Positions 54,066-62,413 of a stretch of 64,000 nucleotides of DNA are shown in pieces. This DNA comes from Chthoniobacterales bacterium (GTDB taxonomy: Bacteria > Verrucomicrobiota > Verrucomicrobiia > Chthoniobacterales > JACTMZ01): the NCBI GenBank assembly GCA_014879535.1, contig JACSRX010000042.1, positions 1 through 64,000 of the forward strand. The letters run 5' to 3'. Numbering within the stretch: position 1 is the first letter of the stretch; each line of letters opens with the position of its first letter. Below the pieces are notes generated by a model that was not told the origin of the DNA, made no database searches, and worked only from the letters and a program-made list of their open reading frames with translations. The position numbers and the translations under genes were made by a program.

Positions 54066-54282
54066 AGGGCCGCAGAAGCAACAGGGAGGGGGCGCCGGAG
54101 TAAAGAGTTTTCCCCGGAAGCCATCTCCTTTATTGCATTTCCCGACGCGGGGCACCCTGCTTTCCGATGGGGTGCGCAAGGAGCCATGAGGCAACAATGC
54201 TGTCAGCGGCAGTGCAACAGATTCCGCCCGGGGACAAGCTGACGACGGATGTTGAAATCCCGCAGGGCCTCCATGGAGGGCG

Positions 54283-54705
54283 TCATGAACCAAGCATGAA
54301 AAATGCAGTCTTGAGTCGCAGGACCTCCCGCCATGAGCTCGAGTTTTGGTCCCAAGATTTCACGAGCACATCCTCGGAATCCTGTTCCACCTGATACTCT
54401 GCAGGCCGCATCGGCATGATGAGGCACGGGAGGATTCGATCCGTCTTCCTCATCCAGAAAATCAGCTCGGTGGAAGCGCGTCCCGAGGTGACTGAACGAC
54501 AGGTCCAATGGACCTCCTTGCCTGGAATGCCGAGTTTCCCGGACCGACCTCCCCCGAAGGAACTCGATCCGCTCCATTGCTTCAGTGCCGCGGCATCGCC
54601 GAACCCCCACTCGGGAATCCCGTCGATGTCGCCAACCTTTTTCGGGCCGTCGGCGAAACAAACGCTGCAGGAAATCAAAATGGCAAGGTGAACCAAGTTC
54701 TTCAT
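54283..54705 (-). CDS. Secreted hypothetical protein
   Basis: The start MKNLVHLAILISCSVCFADGPKKVGDIDG gives 140 residues with a signal peptide cleaved near CFA-DG. The mature part has EWGFGDAAALKQWSGSSSFGG and a C-terminal SWDQNSSSWREVLRLKTAFFMLGS. No family is recognised. It is the most downstream gene of the minus-strand run at 54-62 kb. Confidence 0.6.
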   Translation of the reverse strand: MKNLVHLAILISCSVCFADGPKKVGDIDGIPEWGFGDAAALKQWSGSSSFGGGRSGKLGIPGKEVHWTCRSVTSGRASTELIFWMRKTDRILPCLIMPMRPAEYQVEQDSEDVLVKSWDQNSSSWREVLRLKTAFFMLGS

Positions 54706-54935
54706 GAGCGGCGTCGGGAGTTCGTTGTTTCCGGGGGTGCGGCGGTCCCGGGACGCCGGATTTTGTCGATCATGCGCCCGAAATGAAAGATGCCACCGAC
54801 CTTCGCGCGCGGAGATCGGAAGGGCGGATCGATCATGGTGCCTTCGACAGTCGGGCGGCCCATTTGCGGGAGACGGCGATGACAATCCACCCGAGGTGAT
54901 CTGGGAGGGTTTCATCCTTCACGGCCCGGGATGGG

Positions 54936-55523
54936 TCACGGGTGCTGGTAGCAGTATTCGCGACCGGGTTGGGCATCGCGCGTGCATCGCGTGCCCTTTT
55001 TTGTGATGGCAGCGCACTGCTTGGCATCGCCCTGGGATTTTTTGCCTTTGGCGGCTGTGTCGGTGCGCTCCGCCGTGACTTCCGGGGATGCCGTGGGCTC
55101 CGGGGTCGGGCTTGGGGACGGAGTTGGTTTGGGGGACGTGGATGGCGCGGGTTCGGCGCGGGCCCGGGAGGATGCCGCGGCGCTGGCCGCCTGATACTTT
55201 GTCTCCTCGAAGCCCCATGTCTGAAGTTCGGAGGGGTCGATCTTGGCATAGTCGATGAAGACCATGCCGTCCTTGTGCTGCACGCGGATGCCCAGATCCG
55301 TTTTTCCACGAAGTTGGACGTCCCTCAGAACGGTTCCGTTGGTCAAGGTGAGGTCGATGGCATGCACCGTGCCGGAGAAAAGCAGGAGAACCACCGGCAG
55401 GATTCCCAGGCAGGTCCTCCAAGCCGAAGCCCGGGGTGCACCGGGCACGGCCCCGTCACTTCCCGTGCCGGGGCGCAGCGGCATGCATCCGTCACGACGC
55501 ATGGAGCCATCGGTGGACCGCAT
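54936..55523 (-). CDS. Secreted protein with C-terminal Cys/His zinc-binding-like motif
   Basis: This frame of up to 195 residues has a hydrophobic signal (CLGILPVVLLLFSGTVHA) starting near residue 38, so translation may begin at an internal ATG (MPLRPG). The middle has a small beta domain (IDLTLTNGTVLRDVQLRGKTDLGIRVQHKDGMVFIDYAKI). A long Pro/Thr/Ser/Glu linker (STSPKPTPSPSPTPEP) leads to QCAAITKKGTRCTRDAQPGREYCYQHP, a C-x-KKGTRC-x-C-x2-H module seen in DUF5763-type proteins. The function is unknown. Confidence 0.65.
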   Translation of the reverse strand: MRSTDGSMRRDGCMPLRPGTGSDGAVPGAPRASAWRTCLGILPVVLLLFSGTVHAIDLTLTNGTVLRDVQLRGKTDLGIRVQHKDGMVFIDYAKIDPSELQTWGFEETKYQAASAAASSRARAEPAPSTSPKPTPSPSPTPEPTASPEVTAERTDTAAKGKKSQGDAKQCAAITKKGTRCTRDAQPGREYCYQHP

Positions 55524-55570
55524 TGTTCCGCCTTTCTACATAAATCGCTCCGCCGCTGGCGAGAAATACA

Positions 55571-56008
55571 TCAGGCGGTCGGGTGCGGCCGCACAGGTGG
55601 TCCGGCGCTGTTTTTCAGGCGGGTTTTCGCTCCCCAGCAAACCGCTGCAAGTTTCGTCGCGAACGAAATCACGAAGAGGGCCGCGATGCCGGGCGAAAGT
55701 CCGGCGATCAACAGGATCGAAAGGTCGATGACGGCATAGGCAAGCCAGACGACAAATGCCCCGCGAAGGCCCAGCGAGCGCCGCCACCATCCCGCCACCC
55801 ACCAACCCGCAAGGAACATGATCGGGATGCCGGCAATGATGCTGCAATAGGGCCCGGCAACCTGGATGTGATCCTCGTAATATTCTGGCTCGTGACCGGG
55901 ATCGATGAGGTGTCCGTAGGCGACCATGTAGAGCACGCTGACCATGACATTCGTGACAAGCACCAGCAGTGCAACACCGATCAGCGCCAGAATCCGGCCG
56001 AGTCTCAT
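55571..56008 (-). CDS. Membrane protein of unknown function
   Basis: The start MRLGRILALIGVALLVLVTNVMVSVLYMVAYG gives 145 residues with four predicted helices (about residues 5-28, 55-75, 82-100, 105-125). No family is recognised. It is part of the minus-strand run of small envelope-protein genes. Confidence 0.65.
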   Translation of the reverse strand: MRLGRILALIGVALLVLVTNVMVSVLYMVAYGHLIDPGHEPEYYEDHIQVAGPYCSIIAGIPIMFLAGWWVAGWWRRSLGLRGAFVVWLAYAVIDLSILLIAGLSPGIAALFVISFATKLAAVCWGAKTRLKNSAGPPVRPHPTA

Positions 56009-56137
56009 GGTTGTTCGCTTCCTTTCATGGCCCGACGCGGAGCGCATGGCACCCCAACCAGCGCGGGCGGACAGCGATCACGGGGTTGGAGTTGAAGTGC
56101 GGAGAAACCATTGAAATGCGGTGGTTGGCGGAGCCAG

Positions 56138-56851
56138 TCAGGGAGCACCTTGTCCGTTGTTGGATGTCTCAAGCGGCTCGAACCATTGGAGCCGCGGATC
56201 AAGATCGGTCTCTCGTGCATACTCGAAGTGAACCACTCTTCGACGTGCGGGAGCGACGGATCTGAGTGAGGAGTGGAGAAGCAACGGTGACATCAGAACC
56301 ACATCCCCCGGCCTGCATTCACAAACCACGGCATTCGCCTTGTCGTATGCGGAGACAGCGTCGGCAGAAATGCGTCCATGCCTGTGACTGCCGGGAATCA
56401 CACGCAAGGCACCGTTTGACGCGGGGGTATCATCAAGGTGGAGCCTGATCGTGGCCATGTTCTGAAGAAGCGATGTTGGGGGCTGAACATGGGGAATGCC
56501 ATCCTTGTGAGACCAAGGTCCGTAGCCGGGAACGTCCTGCTCCTGAACCACGGTGATGGTCAGATCTTGATGCCACGCCACGGGCCAGTTCTCATCCGGG
56601 GTCTTGTCAAACAGGATGCTCCGAACCGGTCTCAACGGCTCGGGCAGCAGCGACAAGAGAGAATCTGAAACGCTAAGTTCACTGAAAATGCGGGACCGGC
56701 TGCGCAGGTGCCTCGCACATGCAGAGCCTTCTGAGGCGGCAACGGAATCCGCTTCTTTGCGCAGCGCATCCACTTGAGAGTCGCTGAGGACACCGCGATG
56801 GATCTCAAATCCGTCCGTTGTGAACGTGGGGACTGTTTCTTCGGCAGACAT
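56138..56851 (-). CDS. Phytanoyl-CoA dioxygenase (PhyH) family protein
   Basis: The start is MSAEETVPTFTTDGFEIHRGVLSDSQVDALR (237 residues); the track start is a TTG 25 codons upstream. The Fe(II)/2-oxoglutarate site is visible: H-x-D in VAWHQDLTITV, the distal H in LLLHSSLRSV, and the 2OG-binding Arg in RRRVVHFEYA. NGALRVIPGSHRHGRI is a family signature. It hydroxylates an unknown small molecule. It is the only clearly metabolic enzyme in the 54-62 kb run. Confidence 0.85.
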   Translation of the reverse strand: MSAEETVPTFTTDGFEIHRGVLSDSQVDALRKEADSVAASEGSACARHLRSRSRIFSELSVSDSLLSLLPEPLRPVRSILFDKTPDENWPVAWHQDLTITVVQEQDVPGYGPWSHKDGIPHVQPPTSLLQNMATIRLHLDDTPASNGALRVIPGSHRHGRISADAVSAYDKANAVVCECRPGDVVLMSPLLLHSSLRSVAPARRRVVHFEYARETDLDPRLQWFEPLETSNNGQGAP

Positions 56852-56983
56852 CTGCGGCCTTTGGGTGGATTGCACGATTGGCTCCTTAGGGTTTGTCCTG
56901 AACCGGGATCTCTGAGCCGCTTTCAAGATCCATAGGGGGCTTACTCATGACAAAATCACGGGATGCGTGGCGCAGCTCGCATG

Positions 56984-57427
56984 TTATCGGGTGTCCCGGA
57001 TGTGTCTTCCGATCCGCTGATACAGGATCACCTCAAACCCCGCGATGATGAGGACATCGAACCCGTTGGTCTCATCGGAAATCAGCCCGAGCGAGTCGCC
57101 CAGGAGAAAGAGGGCGATCCCGCAGGGGATGAAAACCAACACGCAGCGAACCGTGACAACCCAGCCGAGAACCACATATTTCTGGATCAGATCGAAGCCC
57201 TGCCGCCCGCCGTTCTGCCGGTAGGCATAAATCACCCCGCCGATCGCGAATGCCACGCTGAGAATCCCCTGGATCCAATCCCAGGTGTTGAACTCTTCCG
57301 TGTTCGGGAGGAGATAGACCACCGCCGCCAAGCCTGCAAAGAGCACCAGATACGGCAGAGCCTCCCGGTCGGACAGGGAACGGGTGCGGAGTTTTTCTTT
57401 GAGAGGTTTGTAGCGGAGGAAATACAT
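56984..57427 (-). CDS. Membrane protein of unknown function
   Basis: The start MYFLRYKPLKEKLRTRSLSDREALPYL gives 147 residues; a GTG six codons upstream is the track start. Four hydrophobic segments are seen (LVLFAGLAAVVYLL, GILSVAFAIGGVIYAY, VVTVRCVLVFIPCGIALFLLG, FDVLIIAGFEVILY). No homologue is recognised. Confidence 0.6.
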   Translation of the reverse strand: MYFLRYKPLKEKLRTRSLSDREALPYLVLFAGLAAVVYLLPNTEEFNTWDWIQGILSVAFAIGGVIYAYRQNGGRQGFDLIQKYVVLGWVVTVRCVLVFIPCGIALFLLGDSLGLISDETNGFDVLIIAGFEVILYQRIGRHIRDTR

Positions 57428-57493
57428 GGGGTTTGGTTCGGGCACGGTTTTGGCGGACGAGCACCGGCCCCGATCCGTGCCGCAACTTTGATT

Positions 57494-57667
57494 TTATGCG
57501 GTTGTGCTTTTTCTGAAAGGCGCGATCTCACTGATAAGCGATGAAGGCTTTGACGTCGGTGACAGGAACAAGGACCTCGCCAGGATCATCGTGGCGAGCA
57601 CGAGGAGTGCTGCGGCGAGAAATGCCCTGCCGCGCGCTTGGGAAAGAGTGAGATTCGCGGAGTTCAT
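57494..57667 (-). CDS. Micro membrane protein coupled to signal peptidase-like gene
   Basis: The ATG overlaps the stop of the S26 peptidase gene (ATGA). The 57-residue product MNSANLTLSQARGRAFLAAALLVLATMILARSLFLSPTS has one transmembrane helix and a short polar tail. It is hidden in the track under a 73-residue ORF. Coupling suggests it works with the peptidase-like protein. Confidence 0.5.
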   Translation of the reverse strand: MNSANLTLSQARGRAFLAAALLVLATMILARSLFLSPTSKPSSLISEIAPFRKSTTA

Positions 57668-58521
57668 TTGCCCATCACTTTCCCGAGAATGGCTTCCCGC
57701 GAAAGTGGCCCCCAAGCGCGGCTGTCGTTTGCCGCGTCGGGATTGTCTCCCAAGACAAAATACTGCCCTTCAGGAATCGTGAAAGGATACGTGGGGGAAC
57801 GGGGGCGTGAGGGGGTCCCGGAGGCTGTGCCGGGTCTGTATTGTATCGTCTGAATCAAAGCCGGGCGGTCCTTGGGGGTGATGCCATTGATCATCAGTCC
57901 GGATTCATCGAAGGAAATGGAATCCCCCGGCAGACCAACGACCCGGAACGTCCAAACGCCGGGATCGTCCGTGCTGCTTGCCGCTGGCATGGATTGCATC
58001 GGCGGGGTGAAAAGAACGACATCCCACCTCCGTGGACTTGAAGACTGGTAAGCATCCAATTGCACCTGAATGGTTTCATTTTGCCTGATCGTGGGCTCCA
58101 TGGAGGAGGGTTTCTGCAGGAACGGTTTCAGGCGCGATCCGGAGAAGGCGGAAATGCCATTCGTCCACATCAACGCCAGCGGAACGAAATAAAAAACCAT
58201 CAGGATGCTGGAAGAGATGCAGATGACCTTCGACGAGGGGTGGCGCCACGTTGAAACCAGAATCGTCAAAAGCACCAGCCAAAGGACGGAGAACAGGAAG
58301 GCGGGCAGCCAGTGATCCAAGAATGGCGACACGGGGATTTCGAAGATTGCTGAAAGTCCTCGCCGGACGGAGCCGAGCAAAAGTGCAAGCGCCATGGGAG
58401 CAAAGAGGACCAAATCAAACGTCAAATCCCCTGCGGAATGATGACGGGTTAGAACGGATGCCTTCATTGTGACCCAAGAGGCCGTCGGACTTGGCGGGAT
58501 TGTTTGCTCAGTTACCAGCAT
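57664..58521 (-). CDS. Type I signal peptidase homologue (S26) lacking the catalytic lysine
   Basis: The 285-residue protein has three N-terminal membrane helices, then the S26A boxes: box B with nucleophile Ser (KPSSMEPTI), box C (RRWDVVLFTPP), box D (VVGLPGDSISF) and box E (VLGDNPDAANDSRAWGPL). In active bacterial enzymes box D reads KR-VVGLPGD, where Lys is the general base; here it is FR (VWTFRVVGLPGD). Either another residue serves, as His does in ER-type enzymes, or the protein is inactive. An internal ATG (MKASVL) is an alternative start. Confidence 0.78.
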   Translation of the reverse strand: MLVTEQTIPPSPTASWVTMKASVLTRHHSAGDLTFDLVLFAPMALALLLGSVRRGLSAIFEIPVSPFLDHWLPAFLFSVLWLVLLTILVSTWRHPSSKVICISSSILMVFYFVPLALMWTNGISAFSGSRLKPFLQKPSSMEPTIRQNETIQVQLDAYQSSSPRRWDVVLFTPPMQSMPAASSTDDPGVWTFRVVGLPGDSISFDESGLMINGITPKDRPALIQTIQYRPGTASGTPSRPRSPTYPFTIPEGQYFVLGDNPDAANDSRAWGPLSREAILGKVMGK

Positions 58522-58587
58522 CCGGCAAGCATGGCCTTCATTTGTGGGGCGCTCTCCGCGACCATCTGGGGCTGTTTCTGGTAGTCG

Positions 58588-59634
58588 TTATGGCCGACCC
58601 TGCTGCCTTCTCTTGCGCGGCTGCTCTTCAGCTTGAAGGTTCAGAAAATCAAGCAGTCGCAGCGGGTAGTCGCTTCGTTGCGGACCGAGAGAAACGGGGC
58701 TTTCATTTGTCCTGAACAGATAAGGCAAAATAAGGTCTGTGTGAGCGAACCCCGTAGCCATGTGCTCTGAGTCTTCAATTCGTCGCAGATCATTCATCTG
58801 TTCCCGATAATTTGGAGGGGGCTTCGGCAAGAATCTTGGATGGCCGATCACCTGTAATGACATGAGGTCATTCGCCGAAAGCTCCGCAATCCTTGCCTTC
58901 AACCGGGCAATCTCCTGCTGGTTCAGGAAATCCGCCGTTGCAGCCTCCTTGGTGGCTTGGTTTAGCCGCTCCATCATCCGCTCCAACAGCCACTCCTGAT
59001 CGAGCACATAGGCTTCAAGATTTTGCTCCGCCCGCTTGGCATTGGCTTTCAAACCACCAAGCACGGCTCGTAGAGTCGTGATCTTCGGATGGCGTTCACC
59101 AAATCCCCTGGCAAGAACCTCTGCAATCTCGGCCTCCTTTGCCGCGATCAGCGGACCAAGAGGATTCCCGGTGAATTCGTTCGTCGCCTGAGGAGGCGGG
59201 GTTGGCAGACGCACCAATTCACGAGTGACGTTGAATTCGAGCGGATTTGAAGCTCCCTCTCTCGTCACGGTGACTTTGACCTGCGTGCCGGGATCGCCGC
59301 GCAGCAAAGCTGCGACCGATTCCGCGCCCAAACCGGCGGTATCCTTGTCGTCGACCATGATGATCCAGTCGTTCGTCATGAGGCCTGCCCTCTCGGCGGC
59401 TCCTCCGGGAAGCACCCGGTGAATCAAGGTTTTGCCATCCGCCGGATGGGCCGACAGGGCTATGGAAATGCCGGAAAGATTGCTGATGGTTGTCGTTGGC
59501 GTGCCGCCCGGTTCCGCCGGGGGGATGACAACCACCTCATTGTATTGCGCCACCGCGCTGGGGACGGCGCAACACAGCACGAAAGCCGCGATTCGGAATC
59601 GTTTCCTCGGGAGTGGCTGTCCAGGGGGTCTCAT
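58588..59634 (-). CDS. Secreted PDZ-domain protein with coiled coil
   Basis: The 348-residue protein has a signal peptide (RIAAFVLCCAVPSAVAQ), a PDZ domain (GISIALSAHPADGKTLIHRVLPGGAAERAGLMTNDWIIMVDDKDTAGLGAESVAALLRGDPGTQVKVTVTR) at about residues 55-130, and then a helical region likely to form a coiled coil (AEQNLEAYVLDQEWLLERMMERLNQATKEA). No protease domain is present. It may be a scaffold or adaptor in the periplasm. It neighbours a signal peptidase-like gene. Confidence 0.75.
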   Translation of the reverse strand: MRPPGQPLPRKRFRIAAFVLCCAVPSAVAQYNEVVVIPPAEPGGTPTTTISNLSGISIALSAHPADGKTLIHRVLPGGAAERAGLMTNDWIIMVDDKDTAGLGAESVAALLRGDPGTQVKVTVTREGASNPLEFNVTRELVRLPTPPPQATNEFTGNPLGPLIAAKEAEIAEVLARGFGERHPKITTLRAVLGGLKANAKRAEQNLEAYVLDQEWLLERMMERLNQATKEAATADFLNQQEIARLKARIAELSANDLMSLQVIGHPRFLPKPPPNYREQMNDLRRIEDSEHMATGFAHTDLILPYLFRTNESPVSLGPQRSDYPLRLLDFLNLQAEEQPRKRRQQGRP

Positions 59635-59640
59635 GAATTA

Positions 59641-60296
59641 TCAAGCCGTCCAGCATCGAACCGTCCCTTCATCGTCGGCGTTTTCCCACTTTTCCTGGAC
59701 TTTCCTGAAAAGATGAAAACATCCGGTCCCATCCAGTGGACCCTTGATAACGCCGGACATCACCTCAACCTTCCGATTTGAGAGGAACACAATTTCGAGG
59801 ATCGGGCTCTTGGGATCCAGTTGCCTTGCCAGACGTTGAATCTCTTGAATATCGCTTGCCAATTGCTCAACCCCTCCGAGAGCCGTGGCACCGATAACCC
59901 TAAAGTCATACGGCAAGGCGTGCCATCTGGAAGTTTTCGCTCCCTTTTGGCAATTTTTCCATCTTCGCCGTAAATCGGGAATTCAAGGAACGCGAGCTCC
60001 CCGTTGGGGTCGTAAACTTCTGTCTTAACGAGTTGGCCGTTGGCAAATTCATGCTTCTCGCGCGCATGGTTCCAGCCGCCACCCTCGTAGTATTCCATCG
60101 GCTCCATTTCCTCCCGAGCAGAAGTCTCAGTTTCCGAAGCACTGGAAAGTTGGTCGAGTGTATGATCCTGAGGAGATGCTCGAAAGCCGTGGGTGATCGC
60201 CGGACGAGACAAGCTCCACAAAATCAAGACCGCAGCAATCACAAGGAGCAGCCAGAAAATTGCCCCGCCTTTAAAATGAGAGCATTTCAAGGGCAT
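59641..60296 (-). pseudogene. Hypothetical exported protein with probable frameshift
   Basis: The upstream frame (start 60296) encodes a membrane anchor (IFWLLLVIAAVLILWSL) and an exported domain up to ERKLPDGTP. It then continues as atypical sequence (CRMTLGLSVPRLSEGL). The +1/-1 frame at 59641-59916 continues with protein-like sequence (YDFRVIGATALGGVEQLASDIQEIQRLA...FHLFRKVQEKW) and overlaps it by 157 bases. A single-base indel around 59,905-59,920 would join them into a protein of about 218 residues. Two overlapping genes cannot be excluded. Confidence 0.5.
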
Positions 60297-60304
60297 CGTA
60301 ACAT

Positions 60305-60685
60305 CTATTCGCTTGGGGGGGAAGCCACTGCTCTTCTGCGAATCACTCTGGGTGCAAACTCGCGATCTTCCACGGTGCCTTTCCCCTGCATGTCCACGAC
60401 GATGACGCGATACCGAGCGGTTGCCTCTGCCGCTTGGGAGTTCGCTCGCGATTCATCGGGAGGCTCGAACCTTGCCTCATAGATTCTCTCCGCGGGCTTG
60501 TCCTGCCGCGAAGTCAACCGAAGGGTCCGCAGATAGAATCCGGGACCGAGATTCTGCGACTTGAGTGTGTCCTGTGCAATCTGTGCGGCCTGCACAAGCG
60601 ACACTTGCGGTTCCTCGTCCTGCGCTTGGATCAGACGGGCCGTGGAAATCAGCGATGCGATGAGAAGGGCTGGGAATTTCATCAT
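60305..60685 (-). CDS. Secreted hypothetical protein
   Basis: The 126-residue protein MMKFPALLIASLISTARLIQAQDEEPQ has a signal peptide cleaved near IQA-QD. The mature part (VSLVQAAQIAQDTLKSQNLGPGFYLRTLRL ... IYEARFEPP ... ARYRVIVVDMQGKG) suggests a PepSY-like alpha/beta fold, but this is not certain. It lies nine bases upstream of the frameshifted gene in the same direction. Confidence 0.6.
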   Translation of the reverse strand: MMKFPALLIASLISTARLIQAQDEEPQVSLVQAAQIAQDTLKSQNLGPGFYLRTLRLTSRQDKPAERIYEARFEPPDESRANSQAAEATARYRVIVVDMQGKGTVEDREFAPRVIRRRAVASPPSE

Positions 60686-60792
60686 GGGGGTGGAGAGTGA
60701 TCGATTCCACTGGCATTAAGCCGGCGTTGCGCGATCAGCTTCATGATTCAAGTCATGGATAGATGGCGTTCAACGCTCAAGAACGATGTCCC

Positions 60793-60981
60793 TCAAAAAT
60801 TGCTTTGCTCGACAATTGCCGATTGCACGGTGAATCGCGTCACGGAGGCTCTGTTGTAATCACCCGGGGAATACAACTTCATTGCGCGTTGGATTTCTGC
60901 TTCGTAGTCGGGCGCCCCTGCATGGCAGATTGCGGATGCGAAAACCAAAAGGCTGACGGATGTGGGGGGCCGTGATTTCAT
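60793..60981 (-). CDS. Small secreted peptide or gene remnant
   Basis: The 62-residue frame MKSRPPTSVSLLVFASAICHAGAPDYEAEIQRAMKL has a plausible signal peptide. It starts 12 bases after the upstream gene. It is short and unrecognised, so it may be a truncated remnant. Confidence 0.4.
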   Translation of the reverse strand: MKSRPPTSVSLLVFASAICHAGAPDYEAEIQRAMKLYSPGDYNRASVTRFTVQSAIVEQSNF

Positions 60982-60993
60982 TGCTCGGCTGTG

Positions 60994-61446
60994 TCAACGT
61001 TTGGCAAGCTCGATGGTTCGCAGTTCATAGCTTTGGCAAAACGGCGCGTTCTTGACGGGGCGGAAGCCATACGTGGCGCGGATGAAATCATCGGAGTTGA
61101 AGTCCTTCAACCGGTCTTTCATGGAGTCGGGTATCTGAAGAAGGATGCCGTCTTTGCCTTCACGCGCAATCATCAGCTCGGATTGCCCCAAGTCGATTCT
61201 CCGAATCGTTCCTTGAAGTTCTCTTGCGGGCATTTGGGCCGCTGCCCGTTCAATCAGTGGGCGGTAGAATGAGGTGAATGCCCAGATGGTGGTGCTGTTG
61301 TAGGGAAGGGAAATCCCGAGGATCACAAGCGAAAAGCTCCCATTGTCTCCGGGGCGCGCTTGGTGGATATGACTCGTGTGATAGCTCAGGACGTAGATCG
61401 TCCCCACCAAAAGAAGTGACGTGAAGATGATGAGAATGCGCTTCAT
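60994..61446 (-). CDS. Membrane-anchored hypothetical protein
   Basis: The 150-residue protein MKRILIIFTSLLLVGTIYVLSYHTSHIHQARP has one N-terminal helix, and a soluble domain (ELQGTIRRIDLGQSELMIAREGKDGILLQIPDSM). Its ATG overlaps the upstream stop by four bases. No family is recognised. Confidence 0.6.
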   Translation of the reverse strand: MKRILIIFTSLLLVGTIYVLSYHTSHIHQARPGDNGSFSLVILGISLPYNSTTIWAFTSFYRPLIERAAAQMPARELQGTIRRIDLGQSELMIAREGKDGILLQIPDSMKDRLKDFNSDDFIRATYGFRPVKNAPFCQSYELRTIELAKR

Positions 61447-62009
61447 GCTCTTGAAGGGCGTGTTTTGTTGTAGCCAACGTCCTGAGGGGCTTGTTCGTGC
61501 TCAACGCCTAATGCTTGGGCATCGATAACGTTGCCTTCGGTGCCCCGATCCTCCTTGACTGGTTCCTCCTTTGACCCTGTGGGCTTCGTCGTGCTGGTCT
61601 TCGTAGTTTCTCGAGGCTCGCTTGTCTTGTCTTCAAGAAAGCGGATGGCCTCCGGGGAGAAGGAATTCGCGGAGTGGGGAACGACCTCCGACAATACGAA
61701 GTCGTAGCTCGCTGTCTGGTTCTGATGGCTCACGCTGATGTTCCCGGGGGATAGGAACCAGAATCCATAAGGGCTCAGAGAATCCAATTCCTTCATGAAC
61801 AGAACGTTTGAAGCGATATCTTGGGCCAGAATTTGCTGAGCGCGGTCATTGTCACCGCTGCGAACCAAGCCATGAATGGCACCTGAAAAATTGTTGCGCG
61901 TGGCGTATGCGTATCTGAATGTCAGCACCGTGGCAGTGTAGAATCCGAACAGGATTCCGGTTGCGAACAAGGCCAAGGCGATGGCGATTTCGGTGAGCTT
62001 TGTTTTCAT
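61443..62009 (-). CDS. Membrane-anchored hypothetical protein
   Basis: The 188-residue protein MKTKLTEIAIALALFATGILFGFYTATVLTF has one N-terminal helix, then a helical domain (AIHGLVRSGDNDRAQQILAQDIASNVLFMKELDSL). A low-complexity tail (EPRETTKTSTTKPTGSKEEPVKEDRG) follows. It is the first gene of the minus-strand run and is coupled to the next one. Confidence 0.6.
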   Translation of the reverse strand: MKTKLTEIAIALALFATGILFGFYTATVLTFRYAYATRNNFSGAIHGLVRSGDNDRAQQILAQDIASNVLFMKELDSLSPYGFWFLSPGNISVSHQNQTASYDFVLSEVVPHSANSFSPEAIRFLEDKTSEPRETTKTSTTKPTGSKEEPVKEDRGTEGNVIDAQALGVEHEQAPQDVGYNKTRPSRA

Positions 62010-62413
62010 GGGGTGCGTACGTTATGGCTGGATCAAACCGGACTCAGTGTTTGGATGGATTGAAGACCGTGACGCGCAAAAGGGGGATAGAGACGAGCCC
62101 GTTTCGGCTGTCGGAGGAACGGCGCGCAAATGGCGAGGCTTGGGTCATGCAAGCTGGGCCGGTTCTGTGGACAAACCGCTTTTATGAGGCATGGAGGGTA
62201 GTGTCGAGGGGATATTCCTCATGTTCCCGGTGAGTTCCACTTTTGTCCCGTGTGGGCGGGATCACGGCGTGACCAGAAGCGTCGCGCTGCCCATTGGCAC
62301 TGAAACCAAGCCAAGGTTCCCGGTGCCCGCATCGGCGGGGACCGCGCCCTGCCTGAGAAGTGGTCTTGGGACCGGTCGGCTGGGGCCAGCCGACCCTACC
62401 GGAGGGCATGAGC
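62010..62413. other. Intergenic region without a visible gene
   Basis: About 400 bases between the argF 3' end and the first gene of the small-protein run. Apart from the REP hairpin at 62374 no coding frame looks real. The upstream promoter of the 61443 gene should lie here, but no convincing match was found. Confidence 0.5.
62374..62399. repeat. Single REP hairpin with CTAC tail
   Basis: GGTCGGCTG, loop GGGC, CAGCCGACC, then CTAC. The stem and tetranucleotide equal the right half of the REP pair at 36877-36930. Read on the minus strand it is GTAG plus hairpin. It lies just past the argF stop. Confidence 0.75.

What the first reader, a model, noticed from the sequence alone, without database searches (positions are those of the whole stretch)
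57664..58521. Signal peptidase I homologue with Phe in place of catalytic Lys
Seen: boxes B, C, D and E are present but box D is TFRVVGLPGD instead of KRVVGLPGD. Known: the Ser/Lys dyad is essential in LepB-type enzymes; ER-type enzymes use His. No obvious substitute is visible. It sits in a cluster of exported orphan proteins and may act on, or only bind, those proteins.
Basis: partly seen in the sequence, partly recalled or inferred. Interest (0 to 1): 0.52.

Follow-up and report, generated by a model that had tools for sequence, protein, structure and literature searches.

The report
Signal-peptidase lookalike without its lysine
A freshwater-type Verrucomicrobiota bacterium carries a membrane protein built like the enzyme that cuts signal peptides but lacking the lysine that makes the enzyme work, and it belongs to a spread-out family of such probably inactive lookalikes, several of which travel on integron gene cassettes.

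Summary
The ORF at 57664-58521 (-) is a clear Peptidase_S26 protein. Phe192 (codon TTC, three changes from a Lys codon) fills the general-base position; Ser140 is kept. The genome has a normal LepB on another contig. The Phe is not isolated: among 99 S26 domains compared, 28 lack the Lys (F, L, M, A, S, Q, R or H instead) and 10 of those also lack the box B Ser. Ser278, which holds the Lys in E. coli LepB, is Ala here; Ala there occurs only in Lys-less proteins (10 of 25, against 0 of 61 with Lys), while the other S26 motif residues stay as conserved as in Lys-bearing proteins. No substitute base is conserved. Pairwise dN/dS is 0.11-0.25. Best reading: a folded, selected, non-proteolytic pseudo-signal-peptidase, in function closest to streptococcal SipA. 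Several relatives are predicted lipoproteins on integron cassettes; the window copy instead has three predicted TM helices, no attC, and lies in an 8-kb low-GC island. New variant of a known kind.

The parts
57664..58521 (-). S26-type (signal peptidase I-like) protein, 285 aa, Lys-less
   Evidence: PF10502 E 5e-27; TIGR02227 89.7 bits
57676..58137 (-). Peptidase_S26 catalytic-domain match (residues 129-282)
   Evidence: fold match to SpsB 4wvg, SipA 4n31 and LepB 3iiq/1b12
58102..58104 (-). Ser140, nucleophile position of box B (QKPSSMEPT), retained
   Evidence: sequence; alignment
57946..57948 (-). Phe192 (TTC) in the position of the catalytic Lys, box D VWTFRVVGLPGD
57730..57732 (-). Ala264 in the position of E. 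coli LepB Ser278 (box E GDNPDAANDSR), the residue that stabilises the Lys
   Evidence: role of Ser278 from PMC4049620
58111..58113 (-). Lys137, three residues before Ser140: considered as a substitute base and rejected (also present in a relative that has the normal Lys, absent in most Lys-less relatives)
58147..58425 (-). Three predicted membrane-spanning helices (residues 33-60, 65-93, 99-125) before the S26 domain; close relatives have a short N-terminus instead, several with a lipobox
   Evidence: helices in the AlphaFold2 model; hydropathy count of 3 and lipobox scan
57494..57667 (-). 57-aa ORF with one hydrophobic stretch whose ATG overlaps the S26 stop codon (ATGA), a possible translationally coupled partner
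   Evidence: (ORF), sequence
58588..59634 (-). PDZ-domain protein with an N-terminal hydrophobic stretch, just upstream on the same strand, possibly co-transcribed
   Evidence: PDZ_6 E 6e-11; 66-nt gap read
54200..62200 (.). Low-GC island (57.3% against 65.0% before and 68.5% after) that holds the gene, between two blocks conserved in the genus
   Evidence: GC; flanking blocks conserved; island genes not found in the loci compared

Best explanation
The gene encodes a pseudo-signal-peptidase: an S26 domain held, probably on the outer face of the inner membrane, by three predicted TM helices, with the fold and the motif residues around the cleft kept, but without the general-base Lys (Phe192) and without the Ser that positions it (Ala264). 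It most likely binds an extended peptide or exported polypeptide without cutting it, as an assembly factor or adaptor, as is thought for SipA in pilus assembly. Shown: homology, predicted fold, absence of Lys and of Ser278, retention of the other motifs, recurrence of the loss in relatives, low pairwise dN/dS, presence of a LepB with both dyad residues. Inferred: lack of proteolysis, topology, peptide binding, any partner.
For: Lys is replaced by F, L, M, A, S, Q, R or H in 28 of 99 compared S26 domains, so the position is free rather than swapped for one defined base. Ser278 is Ala in 10 of 25 Lys-less and 0 of 61 Lys-bearing domains (counts; Fisher p 9e-7, not corrected for phylogeny). In the 17-member Lys-less group the main motif residues of boxes B-E stand at 16-17 of 17, equal to or above Lys-bearing proteins. 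10 of 28 Lys-less proteins also lack the Ser of box B, e.g. L052, L086 and L131. dN/dS about 0.11 (window against L005, dS saturated) and 0.25 (Phe-type pair L066/L161). The model is S26-like and the pseudoenzyme SipA (4n31) is among the top structural matches (TM 0.72 by target length). A LepB with both dyad residues is present. Precedent: SipA has lost Ser90, Lys145 and Ser278, shows no detectable peptidase activity, yet is essential for pilus polymerisation (PMC4049620).
Against: Ser140 is kept here and in 18 of 28 Lys-less proteins, which is more than a fully dead protease would need. Two close relatives (L013, L006) have the canonical Lys and Ser. Ser278 changed only three times on the tree, so the phylogeny-aware test of the Lys/Ser278 link has no power. 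The deep branches of the tree are poorly supported. No activity or binding data exist.
Confidence: 0.7

Rival explanations
1. An active Ser protease or esterase that uses another base: Ser140 with Lys137, Lys285, a substrate- or partner-supplied group, or a water network.
For: Ser140 is kept in most Lys-less members; Lys137 lies three residues before it; a C-terminal Lys (Lys285) is found in 8 of the 11 Lys-less clade members that extend that far.
Against: Lys137 is present in L013/L006, which have the normal Lys, and absent in most Lys-less members (P6 K5 E2 in the clade). Lys285 also occurs in L013/L006. The residue at the Lys position varies freely. Ser278 is lost.
Confidence: 0.15
2. A relic: a signal peptidase paralogue that is decaying and has no function.
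For: It sits in a low-GC island of genes that are patchy in the genus, and the Ser278 partner is lost as well.
Against: Intact 285-codon frame, full motif conservation outside the dyad region, low dN/dS with its Leu-type relative, and the same loss in many genera with intact frames.
Confidence: 0.08
3. A negative regulator or decoy of the cell's own LepB, binding signal peptides and competing with the active enzyme.
For: The motif residues around the cleft are kept, and the window copy has predicted TM helices that would place it at the inner membrane near the Sec pathway.
Against: Several relatives are predicted lipoproteins rather than TM-anchored; no evidence of contact with LepB or Sec.
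Confidence: 0.07

Closest known systems
Type I signal peptidase LepB / SpsB (MEROPS S26; PF10502, TIGR02227)
   Same: Boxes B-E, S26 fold, Ser of box B, Arg after the Lys position, GDN and DSR of box E; predicted N-terminal TM anchors
   Different: No general-base Lys (Phe192), no Ser278 (Ala264); a separate LepB with both dyad residues exists in the genome
SipA (LepA) of Streptococcus pyogenes, PDB 4n31 / 4k8w
   Same: S26 fold without the dyad; loses both the Lys and the Ser278 position; peptide-binding cleft kept (matches)
   Different: SipA has Asp for Ser90, Gly for Lys145 and Arg for Ser278; ours keeps Ser. No pilin or sortase among the nine neighbours scanned. No sequence evidence of a special kinship beyond the S26 family
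ER-type / SipW-type signal peptidases (Ser-His)
   Same: S26 superfamily; weak fold match to human SEC11 (7p2q, E 0.016)
   Different: No His in the base position (Phe)
186 phage CI repressor and other LexA-fold proteins without a working dyad
   Same: Precedent in the superfamily for a non-Lys residue (Arg) in the base position (discussed in PMC12984324)
   Different: Cytoplasmic repressor, S24/LexA branch

Membership tests
Type I signal peptidase (S26, LepB type) | S26 profile and boxes B-E | tested here: met
   PF10502 E 5e-27; TIGR02227 89.7 bits over cut-off 47
Type I signal peptidase (S26, LepB type) | Catalytic Ser (box B) | tested here: met
   Ser140 in QKPSSMEPT
Type I signal peptidase (S26, LepB type) | General-base Lys (box D) | tested here: not met
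   Phe192
Type I signal peptidase (S26, LepB type) | Ser278-type residue that positions the Lys | tested here: not met
   Ala264
Type I signal peptidase (S26, LepB type) | Cleaves signal peptides | not testable with these tools
   needs an assay
ER-type signal peptidase (Ser-His) | His in the base position | tested here: not met
   Phe192
SipA-type pseudo-signal-peptidase | S26 fold with the dyad lost | tested here: inconclusive
   Fold match and Lys and Ser278 lost, but Ser kept
SipA-type pseudo-signal-peptidase | Encoded in a pilus/sortase locus | tested here: not met
   No pilin or sortase match among the nine neighbours scanned
Integron gene cassette (window copy) | attC site just downstream of the gene | tested here: not met
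   No attC-like direct repeats, none in the arm scan beyond 52000, no hairpin better than shuffles in the stretch downstream; the scans are not fully sensitive
Integron gene cassette (relatives L005, L013, L052) | attC just downstream, in a repeat array; integron integrase alongside | tested here: met
   L016: repeats at gene ends, integrase TIGR02249 428.7 bits over 265, two of three folded sites z -2.8. L052: attC-like hairpin starting 4 nt after the S26 stop codon, z -3.3, a 96% copy 566 nt on; integrase not looked for there

The most novel reading that the evidence does not exclude
A mobile family of pseudo-signal-peptidases, many of them cell-envelope lipoproteins carried on integron cassettes across Verrucomicrobiota, that bind signal peptides or exported polypeptides and modify envelope assembly without cutting them.
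Probability: 0.3. Interest if true: 0.7.

Novelty: new variant of a known kind. Interest (0 to 1): 0.5.

Why it matters
S26 pseudoenzymes in bacteria are known mainly from one case, SipA, whose exact role is still unexplained. A family with many members, near relatives that still have the Lys, and repeated loss of Lys, of Ser or of both gives natural pairs for asking what the S26 fold does besides cutting. There is also a practical point: the standard model TIGR02227 passes these proteins as 'signal peptidase I' (even one with neither Ser nor Lys, 92 bits), so databases probably count inactive proteins as enzymes.

Tried and rejected
Integron cassette status of the window copy: looked for direct repeats, R/L-box arms and hairpins; not found. 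One arm-scan hit at 60768-60894 overlaps a small ORF and folds no better than shuffles, so rejected. My attC scans miss some clear sites (e.g. that of L013), so they were not used to count cassettes across the family. A MAFFT alignment of mixed attC sites was too poor for a covariance model and none was built. A conserved partner: none found, neighbours differ. Phylogeny-aware test of Lys/Ser278 coupling: no power. Rfam: two weak hits below their gathering scores in 48-64 kb, not pursued. Literature: SipA was the only non-catalytic bacterial S26 protein found; no paper found on the Verrucomicrobiota family, though the library is incomplete.

Full report
What is there. The ORF at 57664-58521 on the minus strand encodes 285 residues. 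Residues 129-282 match Peptidase_S26 (E 5e-27), and the protein passes NCBI's 'signal peptidase I' model TIGR02227 at 89.7 bits against a cut-off of 47. Box B is QKPSSMEPT, box D VWTFRVVGLPGD, box E GDNPDAANDSR. In the profile alignment with solved signal peptidases the family's box D lies over YVKRVIGVPGD of SpsB, so Phe192 stands where the general-base Lys should be. The codon is TTC, three substitutions from a Lys codon, so a sequencing error is very unlikely.

Normal enzyme elsewhere. Only one other protein of the genome matches the family, a LepB on contig C39 with IPTGSMQPT and YYIKRLAGLGG. The cell therefore has a signal peptidase with both dyad residues.

Family. The closest relatives, in other Verrucomicrobiota MAGs, are short S26 proteins: Leu in place of Lys (L005, 57% identical), Met (L023), Met plus Ala for the box B Ser (L052), and two with the normal Lys (L013, L006). 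A profile of five of these (A2) searched over 388 genomes of the phylum and 384 of the class gave many more. Among 99 S26 domains, 28 lack the Lys, with F, L, M, A, S, Q, R or H instead; 10 of those 28 also lack the box B Ser (L070 and L071 have Ala there, read from the sequence). The sample was drawn by similarity to a profile rich in Lys-less proteins, so these are not frequencies. On the best tree the Lys state changes at least 10 times and the Ser state 9 times, but deep branches are weak and the starred branches alone force only one Lys change. The 19-row group that holds the window protein (17 Lys-less) has support of only 51.

What else changed. E. coli LepB Ser278 stabilises the Lys (PMC4049620). 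Its position is Ala264 here. By motif, it is Ala in 10 of 25 Lys-less domains and in none of 61 Lys-bearing ones (Fisher p 9e-7). This ignores shared ancestry: the state changes three times on the tree and the independent-pairs test has no power. In the column counts, made on a MAFFT alignment, one Lys-bearing row shows Ala at that column, so the 0 of 61 depends on the motif being found. Outside these two positions and the Ser itself, the motif residues are kept at 16-17 of 17 in the Lys-less clade for M141, P143, R165, R193, L197, P198, G258, D259, N260, D266, S267, R268 and G271. The usual sign of relic genes, decay spread over the whole domain, is absent. Pairwise dN/dS is about 0.11 between the window domain and L005 (dS about 2.6, saturated) and 0.25 for the Phe-type pair L066/L161; two very close pairs give uninformative values.

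Substitute base. Lys137 is three residues before Ser140 but is shared with the Lys-bearing L013 and absent in most Lys-less members. Lys285 at the C-terminus is common in the clade but also in L013 and L006. Nothing titratable is conserved only where the Lys is missing. AlphaFold2 gave a model with mean pLDDT 72.7, with blocks of 80-94 around the motifs, and three helices of membrane-spanning length at 33-60, 65-93 and 99-125. Foldseek's top PDB matches are SpsB, SipA and LepB (SipA 4n31: TM 0.72 by target length). The tool returns no coordinates, so distances to Ser140 could not be measured.

Anchoring. Eleven of 28 Lys-less proteins against one of 71 Lys-bearing ones have a lipobox by a simple pattern with a hydrophobicity threshold. 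The pattern misses L013, L006 and L070, whose N-termini (ATAGC, LAGC) also look like lipoproteins by eye, and some hits in multi-TM proteins may be chance. The window protein has three hydrophobic segments and no lipobox.

Genomic context. In G007 (L016) the Lys-type and Leu-type genes lie in an array with repeated sites at gene ends. Next to it is an integrase that scores 428.7 bits against the integron-integrase model TIGR02249 (cut-off 265), as does (430.4) the one beside the Lys-type gene in G009. Of three L016 sites folded as single strands, two are better than shuffles (z -2.8) and one is not (z -0.1). In L052 an attC-like hairpin begins 4 nt after the S26 stop codon, with the R'' and R' boxes partly paired, z -3.3, and a 96% copy 566 nt further on; no integrase was looked for there. 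G134 shows attC-like sequence upstream of its Met-type gene by eye only. G524 has 14 copies of a 54-nt repeat, two of them just after its Ser-type S26 copies; folding of the one site tried was no better than shuffles and no integrase was sought. The window's own genome has integron-type integrases on C38 and C70 and an attC-like site on C38 that folds with z -1.6 (the C38 one was judged from its PF00589 match and sequence only). The window copy itself shows no attC. It lies in an 8-kb stretch of 57.3% GC between flanks of 65.0% and 68.5%. The flanking genes are conserved in the genus, but in the relative where both flanks are on one contig and the distance was worked out, G007, they are over 115 kb apart. 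A tblastn comparison of the island genes with the loci held found matches only for the S26 gene; that is a comparison with fetched loci, not with whole genomes. Integrons are already known from Verrucomicrobiota, and 10-30% of cassettes are reported to encode signal-peptide proteins (PMC8618304), so the cassette setting as such is not new.

Mechanism. I commit to a non-proteolytic peptide- or protein-binding role (0.70), by analogy with SipA, which has lost Ser90, Lys145 and Ser278, shows no detectable peptidase activity and is essential for pilus polymerisation (PMC4049620). In SipA, mutating the cleft or the residues at the dyad positions had no visible effect on polymerisation, so 'binding in the cleft' is not established even there. 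Nothing ties the window protein to its neighbours beyond the same strand, a 66-nt gap to an upstream PDZ gene and a 4-nt overlap with a downstream 57-aa ORF.

Noticed in passing
L073, L074, L075 (and L065): Longer LepB-like proteins with Gly or Ala in place of the box B Ser but Lys kept (L073, L074, L075), and one with Ser kept and Lys replaced by Ser (L065): another way the dyad is broken in this phylum.
   Followed up: no
L159 (G524:C1:3253897-3273000) and L160: Two near-identical copies of a Ser-type (Lys-less) S26 gene about 10 kb apart within an array of 14 copies of a 54-nt repeat, and a third copy about 2 Mb away.
   Followed up: partly
G000:C38 (L199) and G000:C70 (L200): Integron-type integrases in the window's own genome; C38 has an attC-like site at 922-1048, and the C70 integrase runs to the contig end, so its array may be missing from the assembly.
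   Followed up: partly
window 54200-62200: Low-GC island between conserved genus blocks, holding a PhyH-type dioxygenase (56138-56926), a PDZ protein and several small proteins without Pfam matches over cut-off.
   Followed up: partly
L050:7914-8465 and L052:7959-8456, NCBIfam TIGR02227: This model passes S26 proteins without Lys, and L052 without Lys or box B Ser (92.0 bits over cut-off 47), so such proteins are likely annotated as signal peptidase I.
   Followed up: no
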